This document shows, piece by piece, positions 22,973 through 28,067 of a DNA stretch of 64,000 nucleotides. The stretch lies in contig NZ_JBGCCH010000003.1 of the NCBI RefSeq assembly GCF_041261205.1, positions 62,001 through 126,000 of the forward strand. The letters run 5' to 3'. This DNA is from Catenulispora sp. MAP5-51. GTDB lineage: Bacteria; Actinomycetota; Actinomycetes; Streptomycetales; Catenulisporaceae. Position numbers and translations under genes: made by a program. The notes under the pieces are model-generated. The model saw nothing but the letters and a program-made list of their open reading frames with translations, was not told the DNA's origin and ran no database searches. Within the stretch, counting starts at the first letter, position 1, and every line of letters begins with the position of its first letter.

Positions 22973-25906
22973 ATGCGTTACGCGGTCTTGGGGTCGTTGA
23001 AGGTGTGGGATGACGCCGGCGTCGAGGTCCCGGTACCCGCGGGGAAGCAGAGTTCGGTGTTGGCCGCGTTGCTGCTGCGGCCGGGACAGGTTGTCGGGTT
23101 CGACGCGCTGGTCGGTGCGCTGTGGGCGGACCGGCCGGTGGCCGGGGCGCGTTCGGGGCTGGCCACGTACGTCTCCCGGCTGCGCGCGGTGCTCGGGCCC
23201 GACGGTGCGTCGCGGGTCCGGCACGAGGGCCGCGGCTACCTGTTCGCCCCCGAGGCCGGTGACGAGATCGACCACGTGCGGGCCGCGGACCTGGAATGCC
23301 GGGCGCGCGCGGCGGCCGTGGAGGGACGCTGGTCGCAGGCTTGTGAGGCCTCTGCGACGGCACTGGGCCTGTGGCGCGGCGAGGCGTTGGCGGACGTGGA
23401 GTCCGACGAGCTGCGCGGCGAGTACCTGCCGTACTTGGAGGAACTACGGATCCGCTTGGAGCAGCTGCGGATCGACGCGCATCTGGCCCGCGGCGAGTTC
23501 GACGCGATCCTGCCGGCTTTGCGGGCTCTGGCCGGCTCGCATCCGCTGAACGAGCCCTTCCACGAGCGGCACTTCCTCGCGCTGTACGGCGCGGGCCGGC
23601 ATGCCGACGCGCAGGAGTGGTACCGGCAGGTGCGGCTGCGGCTGCGGGAGGAGATCGGGTCCGAGCCGTCGCCGATGCTGCGCCGTTTCTATGAGCAGAC
23701 GCTGCGTGGCGCCGGTGTCGGCGCGCTGGTCGAGGACCTGCTCGGCCTGCGGCCCGTGACGCGGCCGGCGGCGGGGTTGGGGGCGGGGGTGGCGGAGCTG
23801 CCGATGCCGGGGGCGCTCGCGGCCGTGCGGGAAGCCGATGCGTTCTCGACCGAACCGCCGTTCCCGGACCTGCTGCCTCCGTCGCCGCGGCGGTTCGTCG
23901 GGCGCGAGGGCGAACTGGCTCTGCTGACCGAGGCCATGCGGGGGAACCATCCGCCGGACCTGCCGGGGTTGACGCTGCTGGTGGGCATGGCCGGGGTGGG
24001 CAAGTCGGCGTTGGCGCTGACGTGGGCCCACCGGTCGGCGCCGGCGTATCCGGACGGTCGGATCTACGTCGATCTGAAGGGGTTCGCCGATCGCGGCGCG
24101 CCGCTGACGGTCGACGAGGCGGTGCGGACGCTGCTGGACTGCTTCGGGATCCCGGAGCACCGGATGCCGGCCACCGCCGCCGGCCGGGTCGCGCTGTATC
24201 GGGCGGTGATCGCGGACAAGCGGGTGCTGATCGTGCTGGACAACGTCGGGCACTCCGATCAGGTGCGTCCGCTGCTGCCGCCGATGGGTCCGGCGCAGTT
24301 GCTGGCCACCAGCCGCAGTGCGCTGGCCAGCCTGGTGACGATCGACTTCGCGAAGAGCGTGAAGCTGGAGCCGTTGTCGGCGCGCGAGTCGCGGGATCTG
24401 CTGAACGTGCGGCTGGGCGCCGAGCGGACCAGCGGGCACGAGGAGGCGCTCGCTGCCATCGCAGAGCACTGCGCTCACCTGCCGCTGGCGCTGGTGGTCG
24501 CGGCGGGGCGTGCTCGGGTGCGGCCGCAGACGCCTTTGGAGGAGTTGGCCGCGCAGCTCGGCGAGATCGGGAGCAGCCTGGGCGCTTTGGACGGCGGGGA
24601 CGCGGCGGTGAACGTGCGGACCGTGCTGTCGTGGTCGTACCGGCAGCTCAGCCCGGAGGCGGCGCGCTTGTACCGGCTGCTGGCACTGCATCCGGGGCCT
24701 GATCTGTCGATGGCCGCGGCGGCCTCGCTGGCCGGTCTGTCGATGGCCGACGCGCAGGCGACGCTGACCGAGCTGGTGTCGATGAACATGGCGGCGGTCG
24801 ACGCGGACGGCCGGTACGGACGGCACGGGCTGCTGGAGGCGTTCGCGGCCGAGCGGCTGGCGGCGGAGGAGGACGGGGCCGAGCGGGACGCGGCGTTCCG
24901 GCGGCTCGTGGACCACTACCTGCGCGCCGCGGTGAGCGCGAACGTCTACGTCTCGACGGTCGCGCTGCCCTCGCCCGCGGAACTGCCGCCGCCCGGGCCG
25001 GACACGGTGTTCACACCGGTCCGGGACACCGCTGGCGGCGTGGCGTGGTTCAACGGCGAGCGCGAGGTTCTCAGCGTCCTGGTCCCGGCGGTGGCCGCGG
25101 CGGGACTGGACGCCGAGGTGTGGCAGCTGGCGTGCGCGCTGTCCACCGGCCTGGCGCGCATCGGCCGCCTGCAGGAGGACGTCGCCAACGCCCGCCTGGC
25201 CCTGGACTCCGCCCGGCGCCTGGCCGACCCCGTGGCCGAGGCGCACGTGCACCGCATGTTCGGCCGCGACCTGCCCCGCCTGGGCGACCCCGAGGGCGGC
25301 CTGCGCCACCTGGGCAGGGCGCTCGAGCTGTACGGCGAGGCCGGCCACGGGGAGGGCGTCGCCGAGACGAAGCGGACGGTGGCGAACGTCCGCGTGGTCC
25401 AGGGCGACCTCGCCGCGGCGGTGCCGCTGCTGAACGAGTACCTGGCGTACGCGGAGGCCGCCGACGACCGCCACGGCCAGGCGATGGGCCTGAACGCACT
25501 GGGCTGGAGCTACGCGCACCTCGGCCGCCTGCCGGAGGCACTGGCCAGCTGCCGCAAGGCACTGAGACTGAAGGTCGCCAGCGGCCGCCTGGACCACATC
25601 GGCATGCTCTGGGACAGCCTGGCCCTGGTCCACCACCGCCTCGGCGACCTGGACGAGGCCCGCACCTGCTACCGCCGCGCCATCGCCGCCTGCCTCGCCG
25701 AGGGCGACACGACGCAGGCGGCCCTGTCCTCGATGCGCCTCGGCGACGCCCTGCGCGACCGCGGCGACCACGCCGGCGCGCGCGAGAACTGGCGCGAGGC
25801 GCTCGCGGTGTTCGAGGCCGCCCGGCGACCGGAGGCGGCGCTGGTGCGGGAACGGTTGTCGGCGATTCCGCGGCAGCGGTCGGGGGTGGAGTCGGGGTTG
25901 CGGTGA
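22973..25906 (+). CDS. AfsR/SARP-type regulator with BTAD, NB-ARC and TPR domains
   Basis: A 977-residue regulator. Residues 1-95 are an OmpR-like winged helix (MRYAVLGSLKVWDDAGVEVP, then GLATYVSRLRAVLG). Residues 95-245 are the bacterial transcriptional activation domain (helical repeats ending EEIGSEPSPMLRRFYEQTLR). An NB-ARC ATPase begins near 300 (P-loop GMAGVGKSALALTWAH). The C-terminal third is TPR-like (YAEAADDRHGQAMGLNALGW, then LGDLDEARTCYRRAIAACLA). Relatives such as AfsR switch on secondary metabolism, with ATP binding and TPR contacts gating DNA binding. No biosynthetic cluster is adjacent. ATG 22973 and an in-frame ATG at 22961 are both possible. Confidence 0.92.
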   Translation: MRYAVLGSLKVWDDAGVEVPVPAGKQSSVLAALLLRPGQVVGFDALVGALWADRPVAGARSGLATYVSRLRAVLGPDGASRVRHEGRGYLFAPEAGDEIDHVRAADLECRARAAAVEGRWSQACEASATALGLWRGEALADVESDELRGEYLPYLEELRIRLEQLRIDAHLARGEFDAILPALRALAGSHPLNEPFHERHFLALYGAGRHADAQEWYRQVRLRLREEIGSEPSPMLRRFYEQTLRGAGVGALVEDLLGLRPVTRPAAGLGAGVAELPMPGALAAVREADAFSTEPPFPDLLPPSPRRFVGREGELALLTEAMRGNHPPDLPGLTLLVGMAGVGKSALALTWAHRSAPAYPDGRIYVDLKGFADRGAPLTVDEAVRTLLDCFGIPEHRMPATAAGRVALYRAVIADKRVLIVLDNVGHSDQVRPLLPPMGPAQLLATSRSALASLVTIDFAKSVKLEPLSARESRDLLNVRLGAERTSGHEEALAAIAEHCAHLPLALVVAAGRARVRPQTPLEELAAQLGEIGSSLGALDGGDAAVNVRTVLSWSYRQLSPEAARLYRLLALHPGPDLSMAAAASLAGLSMADAQATLTELVSMNMAAVDADGRYGRHGLLEAFAAERLAAEEDGAERDAAFRRLVDHYLRAAVSANVYVSTVALPSPAELPPPGPDTVFTPVRDTAGGVAWFNGEREVLSVLVPAVAAAGLDAEVWQLACALSTGLARIGRLQEDVANARLALDSARRLADPVAEAHVHRMFGRDLPRLGDPEGGLRHLGRALELYGEAGHGEGVAETKRTVANVRVVQGDLAAAVPLLNEYLAYAEAADDRHGQAMGLNALGWSYAHLGRLPEALASCRKALRLKVASGRLDHIGMLWDSLALVHHRLGDLDEARTCYRRAIAACLAEGDTTQAALSSMRLGDALRDRGDHAGARENWREALAVFEAARRPEAALVRERLSAIPRQRSGVESGLR

Positions 25907-25956
25907 CGGGGGGTGTGTCGGCGGCTCGACCCGAACCGCGCCCTTAGCCTTCAACC

Positions 25957-26152
25957 ATGACCGACGAACACGGCCAGCACGGCCAGCACGGCCAGCACGA
26001 CCAGCACGGCCAGCCCGTCCAAGCCGCCATCGACGCCGAGTTGCGCCTCCTGGACCCCGAGGTGCGCGCATCCCCGGACCGGGAGCTCGGTGTGGCGTCT
26101 GACGGAGACCGGCTGGCGGATGTACTTCCACCAGGGCACTCTGGCGGGTTAA
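25957..26152 (+). pseudogene. DUF4440/NTF2-like gene with internal deletion
   Basis: The frame opens at ATG 25957 with a Gly-Gln-His repeat (GQHGQHGQHDQHGQ), then AIDAELRLLDPEVRASPDRE, the first helix of DUF4440 proteins. Near 26090 homology jumps, one frame over, to SVWRLTETGWRMYFHQGT and LAG followed by TAA at 26150-26152. That is the last strand of the same family (RSSVWR...GWRxxFHQGT). About 65 residues between them are missing. So the gene has lost its centre and its frame. Its old stop codon sits two bases before the nested repeat element. Confidence 0.7.
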
Positions 26153-26345
26153 GCGGCGCCCCTGGCCTGTGGGTGGGTGGGTGTGGCTGGTTGCGGTTTG
26201 TTTGTGGGTTGACAGGCACAGGCGTTTCTTGACGGCTTCGCGCGGGGTTTGCGGGATCCGTTGGTGGCGCGGGCGGGGGGTGGTGCTGGTTTTGCGGGGC
26301 GGTGGTGGTGTGGGTAGGTGGTTGGCTCTACTGCGAAAATCAAAG

Positions 26346-26381
26346 GCACGAGCAAGGGCACGAGCAAGGGCACGAGCAAGG
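26346..26381 (+). repeat. Three exact 12-bp tandem repeats
   Basis: GCACGAGCAAGG is repeated three times without change at 26346, 26358 and 26370. The other copy of the element has a different, shorter tract here, so this part expands and contracts freely. Confidence 0.85.
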
Positions 26382-26492
26382 TCAAGGTCAAGGGCTTACA
26401 GGCGCCTCCGGCGGCGCCTGCGCGGCGAGCGGCCTCGCTCCGGGGAGTGGGGGTTGCGCTGGCTGCTGCCGGTCGCTGCTTGTGGTCGCCTT

Positions 26493-26516
26493 TGTCCCGG
26501 ATTCCCCGCCGCTTCG
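26493..26516 (+). repeat. 24-bp motif, copy A
   Basis: Begins TGTCCCGGATTCCCCG and ends CGCTTCG. It is the inverse of 26631-26654 except for one base, and both bound the first hairpin unit. Confidence 0.85.
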
Positions 26517-26529
26517 TCGCCCGGAGGGA

Positions 26530-26616
26530 ACCATCCCGGCCTGGGCGGTATCAAGCCGGATCACACGCTGCTGTGGCCTAGTATCGGCGGCTTGACACCG
26601 CCCAGTCCGGGATGGT
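26530..26616 (-). ncRNA. Candidate structured-RNA hairpin, unit 1
   Basis: Stem 26541-26558 pairs with 26588-26605 (17 of 18). The outer arms ACCATCCCGG and CCGGGATGGT (26607-26616) also pair. The single internal mismatch is A-C on the plus strand and becomes G-U on the minus strand, as does the mismatch between motif copies A and B. I therefore predict the minus strand as the RNA. It could instead be a DNA hairpin of a REP or MITE-like element. Confidence 0.4.
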
Positions 26617-26630
26617 TGTGCAAGCACCGC

Positions 26631-26654
26631 CGAAGCGACGGGGAATCCGGGACA
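26631..26654 (-). repeat. 24-bp motif, copy B
   Basis: Inverse copy of the motif. Its match with copy C extends on both sides to about 33 bp. Confidence 0.85.
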
Positions 26655-26750
26655 ACCCCGCCTGTGGGAACGGTTCCCGCACCTCGCGCCAGTCATGTCA
26701 CCGCAGCGTGTGCGAACCAAGTGGACCCGGTCCACACCACAGACCGGGGT

Positions 26751-26774
26751 TGTCCCGGATTCCCCGTCGCTTCG
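26751..26774 (+). repeat. 24-bp motif, copy C
   Basis: Same orientation as copy A; shares with B the T/A variant at the ninth base from its inner end, while A and D share C/G. Confidence 0.85.
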
Positions 26775-26786
26775 GCGGGCGTAGCC

Positions 26787-26872
26787 AAGCAGGCCGGTCC
26801 GGTGGTGTCAAGTCGCTGATACTGGACCACCAGCTCTGCGATCCGACTTGATACCACCGGACCGGTCTGCTT
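26787..26872 (+). ncRNA. Candidate structured-RNA hairpin, unit 2
   Basis: Stem 26794-26815 pairs with 26844-26865 (21 of 22), with outer arms AAGCAG/CTGCTT. Compared with unit 1 read in the same sense, at least five stem pairs differ by changes on both sides that keep pairing. The remaining mismatch is G-U on the plus strand. The loop keeps GGATC and AGTATC in the inverse sense. Confidence 0.4.
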
Positions 26873-26883
26873 CCGTAAGGCGA

Positions 26884-26907
26884 CGAAGCGGCGGGGAATC
26901 CGGGACA
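26884..26907 (-). repeat. 24-bp motif, copy D
   Basis: Inverse partner of copy C, closing the second palindromic unit (26751-26907). Confidence 0.85.
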
Positions 26908-27227
26908 GAGGCGACCACAAGCAGCGACCGCCGCCCGACTACGCGGCCCCCACTCCCCGGAGCGAGGCCGCTCGCCGCGCAGGCGCCGCCGGAGGCGCCT
27001 GTAAGCCTTTGATCTTGCCCTTGCCTGTCGCAGTTGCCCTTGGTTTTCGCAGTAGAGCCGACCGCCTACCCACACCACCGCCGCCCCACGAAACCAGCAC
27101 CACCCCCGACCCGCGCCACCAACGGATCCCGCAAACCCCGCGCGAAGCCGTCAAGAAACGCCTGCAAGCCCCCACCCCAGCCGCACCCACACGAGGAACT
27201 GACCCACACATAGGTCAGGGGCGCCGG

Positions 27228-28067
27228 TTAAGCCCGCCGCTGCCGTCCCTCCTCGAAGTCCTGCGCCGGCAAGCGCCCCTCCCGGACCGCGATCGCGTTC
27301 ACCAGCCGCTCGTACGTGTGCGGCGCCAGCAGGTCGCGGGCGGCCTCCACGTCGAAGAACCCGAACTCGTCGATCTCGTTCTCCTGCAGGCGGATGCGCG
27401 CGATGTCCTCCGGGCCGAGTTCGCCGCCGTCGTAGAAGTAGTGGATCAGGGGCGGGCGTTCGGCGGCGCGGGGGCGCCAGTCCACCATGAGCAGTGCGCC
27501 GGGTGGCACGTCCAGGCCGATCTCCTCCAGGGATTCGCGGCGGGCGCCCTCGGCCGGGAACTCGCCTTCCTCGACGCCGCCGCCGGGGAAGCTCCACTTC
27601 TTGTCCTGGCGGTAGGACTGGTGGACCAGGAGGACCTTGCCCGTTCCGTCGTGGAACAGCATCGAGGCGCCGACGATCACCTTCGGGAGTGATGCCACCC
27701 AGGCCGCGCGGTCCAGGCCGGTGCCGTGGTCCGACAGGCGGGGTGCGCCGGCGTCGATCGAGCGCAGGTAGAGGCGGCCGATGTGCTCGCTCAGGACGCG
27801 CTCGGGGTCGGGGACCACGGTTGCCAGGGCGACGGATGCCGCGGTGATCACGTCGCAGAGTTCGGCGGCCAGGTCGGCTTCGGTGTGGCTGCGGCCCTTG
27901 CGCGGGTTCTGGCCGGTGGTGCCGATCAGGGCGGCCGCGGCTTCGCCCGCCTCCTCGGCCACCTTCAGGACCCGTAGGGGGACCGCCAGTGCGGGATCAG
28001 TGTCCGGGTGCGAGTCCAGCCAGGCCTTCTGCTGCCGGACCACCTGCCAGATCAACGCCTCGTCCAT
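27228..28067 (-). CDS. MazG-like pyrophosphohydrolase fused to a NUDIX hydrolase
   Basis: A 279-residue two-domain enzyme. Residues 1-110 are an all-alpha MazG-like domain with the metal motifs EEAGE (near 38) and ELCDV (near 70). Residues 125-265 are a NUDIX domain with a complete box: GGVEEGEFPAEGARRESLEE followed by IGL. Both domains remove pyrophosphate from nucleoside diphosphate or triphosphate compounds, so the fusion suggests a dedicated nucleotide-pool cleaning enzyme. ATG 28067 lies inside the end of the rhomboid gene (71-nt overlap), implying coupled translation. Its stop codon is two bases from the nested repeat element. Confidence 0.88.
   Translation of the reverse strand: MDEALIWQVVRQQKAWLDSHPDTDPALAVPLRVLKVAEEAGEAAAALIGTTGQNPRKGRSHTEADLAAELCDVITAASVALATVVPDPERVLSEHIGRLYLRSIDAGAPRLSDHGTGLDRAAWVASLPKVIVGASMLFHDGTGKVLLVHQSYRQDKKWSFPGGGVEEGEFPAEGARRESLEEIGLDVPPGALLMVDWRPRAAERPPLIHYFYDGGELGPEDIARIRLQENEIDEFGFFDVEAARDLLAPHTYERLVNAIAVREGRLPAQDFEEGRQRRA

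What the first reader, a model, noticed from the sequence alone, without database searches (positions are those of the whole stretch)
26146..27235. A 1.07-kb nested inverted repeat exactly fills the gap between two convergent genes
Seen directly: 26155-26171 and 27209-27225 are inverse copies (15/17), each beginning two bases after the flanking stop codon. Arms 26219-26521 and 26879-27164 are inverse copies with high identity. Inside lie two palindromic units and a symmetric spacer. The whole is a tail-to-tail pair of roughly 530-bp elements. The copies have diverged but keep their hairpins, while reading frame is lost between them (for example across the 12-bp repeat tract). Inference: a structured RNA, a giant bidirectional terminator/3'-UTR element, or a MITE-like mobile element. 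I know of no described family with this layout.
Basis: partly seen in the sequence, partly recalled or inferred. Interest (0 to 1): 0.87.

Follow-up and report, generated by a model that had tools for sequence, protein, structure and literature searches.

The report
Giant palindromic mobile element, transposase-less
The 1.07-kb inverted repeat is one copy of a mobile DNA element found many times in this soil bacterium and its close relatives; it carries no recognisable gene of its own, was probably moved by the enzyme of a related jumping gene, and landed exactly on the overlapping stop codons of two facing reading frames.

Summary
The inverted repeat is real and where stated. It is a non-autonomous transposable element, not a locus-specific RNA. 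The element, 26155-27225, is bounded by 24-bp terminal inverted repeats (21/24 alike) and a perfect 8-bp target-site duplication, GGTTAAGC, which copied the overlapping stops of two convergent frames; hence both ends sit two bases from a stop. At least 39 places in this genome carry the element. It was found in all 10 genus genomes searched and in 0 of 31 others (capped first look). The insertion point is empty in the closest of the relatives compared. The likely mover is an ISL3-family transposase: an intact ISL3 in Catenulispora acidiphila shares the terminal motif and 8-bp duplication, and a truncated ISL3 in this genome has a 23/24 identical end. Movement in trans is inferred, not shown. 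Unusual is the plan: about 1.05 kb, two diverged inverted halves, each with a ~160-nt hairpin; pairing of unit 1 survives sequence change. It works like a MITE but exceeds the usual size. Any terminator or RNA role is untested.

The parts
26155..27225 (.). Whole non-autonomous element (1,071 bp), two diverged halves tail to tail
   Evidence: Bounded by TIRs and TSD; at least 39 places in the genome
26147..26154 (+). Left target-site duplication GGTTAAGC; holds the stop TAA of the left remnant frame (26150-26152)
27226..27233 (+). Right target-site duplication GGTTAAGC; holds the stop (27228-27230, minus strand) of the NUDIX gene
26155..26178 (+). Left terminal inverted repeat GGCGCCCCTGGCCTGTGGGTGGGT
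   Evidence: (48 genome hits of the TIR pattern, 0 for the reversed-pattern control)
27202..27225 (-). Right terminal inverted repeat GGCGCCCCTGACCTATGTGTGGGT; 23/24 identical (by eye) to the end of a truncated ISL3 element in the same genome (L093)
26219..26491 (+). Left arm, non-coding, with a 12-bp tandem tract
   Evidence: indels mostly not in threes between copies
26908..27164 (-). Right arm, inverse of the left
26492..26655 (+). Hairpin unit 1 (164 nt palindrome)
   Evidence: -111.9 kcal/mol, z -10.3; paired changes between species
26656..26750 (.). Central spacer; in other copies the site of nested IS256-type insertions
26751..26907 (+). Hairpin unit 2 (157 nt palindrome), inner stem different in sequence from unit 1
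   Evidence: -119.3 kcal/mol, z -14.0; no pair count was made for this unit

Best explanation
The feature is a non-autonomous transposable element of about 1.05 kb, MITE-like but longer, present in many copies in Catenulispora. SHOWN: its 24-bp terminal inverted repeats, its 8-bp target-site duplication, its many copies at unrelated places, and the absence of the copy at the same place in the closest of the relatives compared. INFERRED: an ISL3-family DDE transposase acting in trans binds the terminal repeats, moves the whole 1.07-kb unit, and inserts it into an A/T-rich 8-bp target, duplicating it. In the window the target was GGTTAAGC, in which the stops of two convergent frames overlap. The duplication gave each frame its own stop back, so the insertion was probably harmless and seems to fill the gap exactly. 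The inner hairpins are cargo of the element. Their pairing has been kept while the sequence changed (tested for unit 1); whether by selection (transcription end, transposition) or by palindrome-copying repair is not known.
For: Copies: 94 pieces merge into 39 places in the own genome, a lower bound because 40 of 191 candidates were scored; 15 of 20 further stretches match over 76 query bases or more. All 10 genomes of the genus match, 0 of 4 in other genera of the family and 0 of 27 in the order, with 11 candidates scored in each genome. TSD: of 26 places tried, 20 gave end-like motifs on both sides; all 9 with good ends (at most 2 mismatches in total) have 6-8 of 8 matching bases, 5 of them 8/8; cross-paired flanks reach 7 in 1 of 380 and never 8. 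The 9 left-hand TSDs are 44/72 A+T against 29% A+T in the window. Empty sites: window site in G008 (19 bp between the two stops, no element); three further places (5 of 6, 3 of 6 and 2 of 4 relatives compared clearly empty). Mover: intact ISL3 in C. acidiphila with ends GGCGCCCCTGACTTATCCGTGG / GGCGCCTCTGACTCATCCGTGG and TSD CATTTTTC 8/8; a truncated relative in the own genome, 90% identical over 116 aa, ends in GGCGCCTCTGACCTATGTGTGGGT. Moved as a unit: L071 carries a nested insert and still has an 8/8 TSD. Non-coding: 84 of 97 indel runs in the arms are not multiples of three; no Pfam match in four ORFs.
Against: No intact ISL3 with these ends was seen in the own genome: of its 6 PF01610 matches 5 were given as loci and only the truncated one has these ends; the one match over the whole profile (C34) has other ends, GGCTCTTCGC. 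The likeness between IS and element that I saw is confined to about the outer 12-24 bp. 11 of the 20 end pairs are weak and show no TSD, and 6 of 26 places lack one end. At one of the four insertions compared, relative G001 also has an element-like stretch. The size (1.07 kb) and the half-kilobase inverted halves lie outside the usual MITE description. Transposition has not been observed.
Confidence: 0.9

Rival explanations
1. The element is a mobile relic that has been taken over by the host as a bidirectional 3'-end device: read from either side it forms very stable hairpins that end transcription or protect the 3' ends of convergent genes.
For: Convergent flanks in 12 of 26 own-genome places against 18 of 130 background gene pairs (Fisher p = 0.0005), and in 5 of 6 C. 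acidiphila places. Very stable hairpins. Six base pairs of unit 1 with changes on both sides between copies.
Against: Against the window's own gene pairs (15 of 56 convergent) the excess is not significant (p = 0.13). No terminator-like pattern found in the region. A/T-rich target choice and loss of insertions in promoters and genes explain the position as well. Of four insertions compared with relatives, none is clearly shared, though one relative has an element-like stretch at one of them.
Confidence: 0.12
2. A conserved structured RNA gene with its own function.
For: Strong folding of both units; paired changes between C. acidiphila and own-genome copies of unit 1.
Against: Copies differ in place between species and have TSDs; nested insertions in the centre are tolerated; no Rfam family reaches its gathering score, the 8 matches up to E = 1 being seven miRNA precursor hairpins and one viral 3'UTR; no sigma-70-like promoter pattern. 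Palindrome-copying repair would give the same paired changes.
Confidence: 0.04
3. The mover is an IS256-family transposase, such as the one inside copy L073, and the window copy is an internal deletion of that element.
For: L073 has a 451-aa Mutator-type transposase (PF00872) between two halves and an outer 8-bp TSD.
Against: That IS has its own inner inverted repeats (by eye), gives one full match in the genome, and sits in a centre whose uninterrupted form exists in other copies such as L048, with an approximate repeat like GTGTGGTG at its edges: it reads as a nested insertion. The outer ends match an ISL3 element instead.
Confidence: 0.04

Closest known systems
Bacterial MITEs (as reviewed in PMC10969869; section 5 of the text, '2.1. 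Conserved Structural Features', and passages read)
   Same: Terminal inverted repeats related to an IS, target-site duplication, many copies, intergenic and A/T-rich targets, no transposase, transcripts that would fold into stem-loops
   Different: Reviewed MITEs are typically under 500 bp with TIRs of about 4-30 bp and A/T-rich; this one is about 1.05 kb, 68% G+C, its halves are inverse along most of their length, and each half has its own ~160-nt palindrome
ISL3-family insertion sequences
   Same: Terminal motif GGCGCYCCTGAC and 8-bp target duplications, shared with an intact Catenulispora ISL3
   Different: No transposase gene; no likeness to the IS seen inside the outer 12-24 bp
Foldback (long-TIR) elements (name and features recalled, from no call)
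   Same: Very long terminal inverted repeats with inner repeats and a short variable middle
   Different: Those I recall are eukaryotic; here the outer end motif and the TSD point to an ISL3 IS
TIMEs, Tn3-derived non-autonomous elements (PMC4133298; passages read)
   Same: Non-autonomous, transposase thought to act in trans, folded transcripts predicted
   Different: Tn3-type ends and 5-6 bp duplications, 262 bp in the basic form, usually single copies

Membership tests
MITE (non-autonomous IS derivative) | Terminal inverted repeats | tested here: met
MITE (non-autonomous IS derivative) | Target-site duplication | tested here: met
   GGTTAAGC 8/8 in the window; 9 of 9 copies with good ends at 6-8 of 8; not seen in the 11 pairs with weak ends
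MITE (non-autonomous IS derivative) | No transposase gene | tested here: met
MITE (non-autonomous IS derivative) | Many copies at unrelated places, with empty sites | tested here: met
MITE (non-autonomous IS derivative) | Length typically under 500 bp | tested here: not met
   1,071 bp here; 1,028-1,071 bp for the 7 uninterrupted copies with good ends. Hence 'works like a MITE', not filed as a standard member
MITE (non-autonomous IS derivative) | A/T-rich composition (typical in the review) | tested here: not met
   68% G+C, window 71%
ISL3-mobilised element | End motif shared with an ISL3-family IS | tested here: met
ISL3-mobilised element | 8-bp target duplication | tested here: met
ISL3-mobilised element | Moved in trans by the ISL3 transposase | not testable with these tools
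   needs a transposition assay
Structured RNA family (Rfam) | Match at or above a family's gathering score | tested here: not met
   8 matches up to E = 1 in 25900-27500, none at or above its gathering score
Intrinsic terminator | Short stem-loop followed by a T run | tested here: not met
   0 found in 26000-27400 by a simple scan, shuffle mean 1.0

The most novel reading that the evidence does not exclude
A genus-wide class of long palindromic, transposase-less ISL3 passengers whose hairpins are under selection (keeping their pairing through paired changes) and which now serve as portable bidirectional 3'-end or insulator cassettes between convergent Catenulispora genes.
Probability: 0.12. 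Interest if true: 0.6.

Novelty: new variant of a known kind. Interest (0 to 1): 0.38.

Why it matters
It turns an apparently singular intergenic structure into a genus-wide mobile family and explains its exact fit between two stops by a duplication of overlapping stop codons. 54 places carry all or part of it (39, 15; some are fragments at contig ends), and at least 14 contig ends of this draft genome fall in or within 30 bases of a copy, so it probably breaks assemblies. It also offers a natural set of large palindromes with two diverged hairpins per copy, useful for asking how bacteria keep long palindromes paired while their sequence changes.

Tried and rejected
IS256 parent: the transposase between the two halves in L073 looked like an autonomous form, but it reads as a nested insertion. 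Protein-coding arms: rejected. Rfam match: only hairpin shapes below the gathering scores. Insertion into intrinsic terminators as a general rule: a hairpin with a T run stands beside only some insertions (3 of 9 two-ended copies, 2 of 3 ISL3 elements, 2 of 17 one-ended, by a loose rule), so I claim A/T-rich targets only. A named scan of the genome collection with an 18-base hairpin pattern gave 33 stretches: the two Catenulispora ones (C. pinisilvae, C. pinistramenti) match the element over about 180-190 bases (E 3e-30 and 1e-29), the other 31 over no more than about 40 bases (best E 4e-4), and I take those as chance. Concerted evolution of the two arms within a copy: only a weak trend (0.871 against 0.835 to other copies; 13 of 18 copies), and by the tree 4 of the 18 copies (L057, L058, L060, L065) were given to that script in the wrong orientation. 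Literature: searches list no paper whose title or abstract beginning names this element; most show only the top of longer lists (20 of 3,223; 4 of 4; 5 of 5; 15 of 38; 15 of 176; 3 of 3; 10 of 43; 10 of 92; 10 of 16). Beyond listings I saw passages of PMC10969869 (and its section 5), PMC4133298 and PMC3035231. ISfinder could not be searched.

Full report
Observation. The sequence does hold a nested inverted repeat at 26146-27235. The tool finds the arms 26219-26348/27035-27164 (93% complementary) and 26376-26521/26879-27024 (91%), the ends 26146-26178/27202-27234 (85%), and two inner palindromic units. In a 64-kb scan with seed 12, at least 25 nt and a 3-kb limit, the two arm pairs are the longest of 18 pairs, and the 6 pairs at 91% or more all lie here; the other 12 are at 84% or less. 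As single strands the two units, 26492-26655 and 26751-26907, fold at -111.9 and -119.3 kcal/mol, z -10.3 and -14.0.

It is a repeat family. A search of the own genome with 26155-27225 gives 94 matching pieces, which I merge into 39 places; 40 of 191 first-look candidates were scored, so this is a lower bound. A further 20 stretches were fetched after pattern and centre matches; 15 of them match the element over 76 query bases or more, two (L095, L096) over the outer ~60 only, and three (L093, L099, L102) only in the end motif. Some contig-end pieces may be two parts of one copy. Among 41 genomes, all 10 of the genus match (own included), 0 of 4 from other genera of the family, 0 of 27 from the order; 11 candidates were scored in each. 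The genus is Catenulispora: G004 is 10,467,782 bp in one contig, the size printed for C. acidiphila (PMC3035231, passages), and two contigs found by name (C. pinisilvae, 20,227 bp; C. pinistramenti, 16,344 bp) have the lengths of the contigs of L042 (G009) and L036 (G002).

Ends and target duplication. Lining up copies by eye showed a common end, GGCGCYCCTGACYTNTGTGTGGGT. With up to 3 mismatches the pattern occurs 24 + 24 times in the genome, its reversed control 0 times. I tried 26 places for both ends: 20 gave an end-like motif on both sides, and 9 of these had good ends. All 9 have a direct repeat next to the ends, with 8/8 (window, L046, L057, L071, L073), 7/8 (L047, L050) or 6/8 (L051, L053) bases alike. 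The other 11 of 20 have 2-5; the remaining 6 of 26 lacked one end. Of 380 mismatched pairings 13 reach 6, 1 reaches 7 and none reaches 8. In the window the duplication is GGTTAAGC at 26147-26154 and 27226-27233. It contains TAA for the left frame and TTA, the reverse-strand stop of the NUDIX gene (PF00293; stop).

Empty sites. In G008, whose NUDIX protein is the most similar of the nine relatives searched (94%), the same two frames face each other with 19 bp between their stops and no element; an element-like fragment does lie about 250 bp further on, beyond the remnant frame (L143:2609-2711). Three further insertions were compared with relatives. For L073, 5 of 6 relatives show flanks 27-138 bases apart with no element, and G001 has an element-like stretch in an 804-base gap. 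For L057, G008, G009 and G004 are empty (11-119 bases), G001 and G002 have several hundred unaligned bases without an element match, and for G006 no right flank was found in the locus. For L053, G001 and G006 are empty, in G008 and G004 only one flank aligned, and G009 and G002 gave no match.

Who moves it. At the pattern hit of L093 the end GGCGCCTCTGACCTATGTGTGGGT, 23/24 identical to the window's right end, follows closely on the 3' part of an ISL3-family transposase gene. A search of 10 genus genomes with PF01610 finds matches in 8. The intact C. acidiphila element (L113) is 1,403 bp, encodes 425 aa, has ends GGCGCCCCTGACTTATCCGTGG/GGCGCCTCTGACTCATCCGTGG and the duplication CATTTTTC on both sides. 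The own-genome remnant is 90% identical to it over 116 aa. Two other intact ISL3 elements in the genus, one of them in the own genome, have different ends (GGCTCTTCGC) and duplications of 8/8 and 7/8, also with T or A runs. That an ISL3 transposase moves the 1.07-kb unit is an inference from shared end motif and duplication length. No intact ISL3 with these ends was seen in the own genome (5 of its 6 PF01610 matches were given as loci), so the mover may be lost or lie in a gap.

Anatomy and evolution. In a tree of half-elements from 18 copies the two halves fall into two lineages, once 4 copies that were probably given in the wrong orientation are turned; L066, whose halves group together, is an exception. 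So the 1.07-kb unit, not the half, is what has mostly been copied. The centre accepts other mobile DNA: L073 holds an IS256-family IS (PF00872), with one full match in the genome, and L071, L077 and L079 share a nested insert (98.9-100% identical over 175 bases). L071 still has a perfect outer duplication, so the compound probably moved. In G006 a 979-bp form with one hairpin unit has the duplication ACATATCG on both sides. The arms are not coding: 84 of 97 indel runs are not multiples of three, 23 of 34 half-copies have a net frame shift, and four ORFs have no Pfam match.

Hairpin pairing. For 30 chosen copies of unit 1 (26 of the own genome, 4 of C. acidiphila; not every copy was used), 95.7% of cells pair, and 6 of 50 pairs have changes on both sides, 21 cells in all; shuffles reach 6 pairs in 5 of 500 and 21 cells in 0 of 500. 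The number of pair types is not above the control (427 of 500), 30 pairs never vary, and 14 of 50 pairs depart only by cells that do not pair. Twenty of the 21 cells come from the 4 C. acidiphila copies, so they are about five inherited events. They fit selection on the hairpin, or repair that copies one arm of a palindrome onto the other; the data do not separate these. Unit 2 was folded but not counted.

Position. In 26 own-genome places with both flanks at hand (window left out, because my simple gene caller misread its decayed left frame) 12 are convergent, 12 tandem and 2 divergent; of 6 C. acidiphila places 5 are convergent and 1 tandem. In the own-genome flanks the gene pairs are 18 convergent, 85 tandem, 27 divergent. 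The convergent excess is significant against these flanks (p = 0.0005) and not against the window's pairs (15 of 56; p = 0.13); the lack of divergent places is not significant (p = 0.17). An A/T-rich target choice (44 of 72 bases) with loss of harmful insertions explains this without a function.

Verdict. A non-autonomous, ISL3-type mobile element with an unusually long, doubly hairpinned plan. It works like a MITE but fails the size and A/T norms given in the review (PMC10969869 section 2.1; here 1,071 bp and 68% G+C), so I call it a new variant of a known kind. No paper naming it came up in the listings of nine searches, most of which show only the top of a longer list; ISfinder was out of reach.

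Noticed in passing
L073:4560-6160 (G000:C9): An IS256-family IS (451-aa transposase, one full match in the genome) nested in the centre of an element copy, with an approximate 8-bp duplication
   Followed up: yes
L071, L077, L079 (element centres): A shared insert (175-bp stretch compared, 98.9-100% identical) with IS256-like ends (judged by eye), nested at the element centre and apparently copied along with it
   Followed up: partly
L158:2707-3191 (G006): A hairpin unit of the same type sits in a different inverted repeat of about 485 bp, so the unit may be modular
   Followed up: no
L095:3976 and L096:5989: The same terminal repeat begins stretches with only the outer ~60 bp similar to the element; perhaps a second, smaller family
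   Followed up: no
L143:2609-2711 (G008): An element-like fragment near the empty window site of the relative, on the other side of the remnant frame
   Followed up: no
window 25958-26152: Left frame looks like a decayed remnant: its C-terminal part matches a 57-aa frame of G008 (likeness to DUF4440 proteins is recalled, not tested)
   Followed up: partly
G000 contig ends (L064, L069, L074, L076, L078, L080, L082, L097, L100, L103, L106-L109): At least 14 contig ends of the draft genome fall in or within 30 bases of an element copy
   Followed up: partly
window 25962-26024: 9-bp tandem repeat (CGGCCAGCA) near the start of the left remnant frame
   Followed up: no
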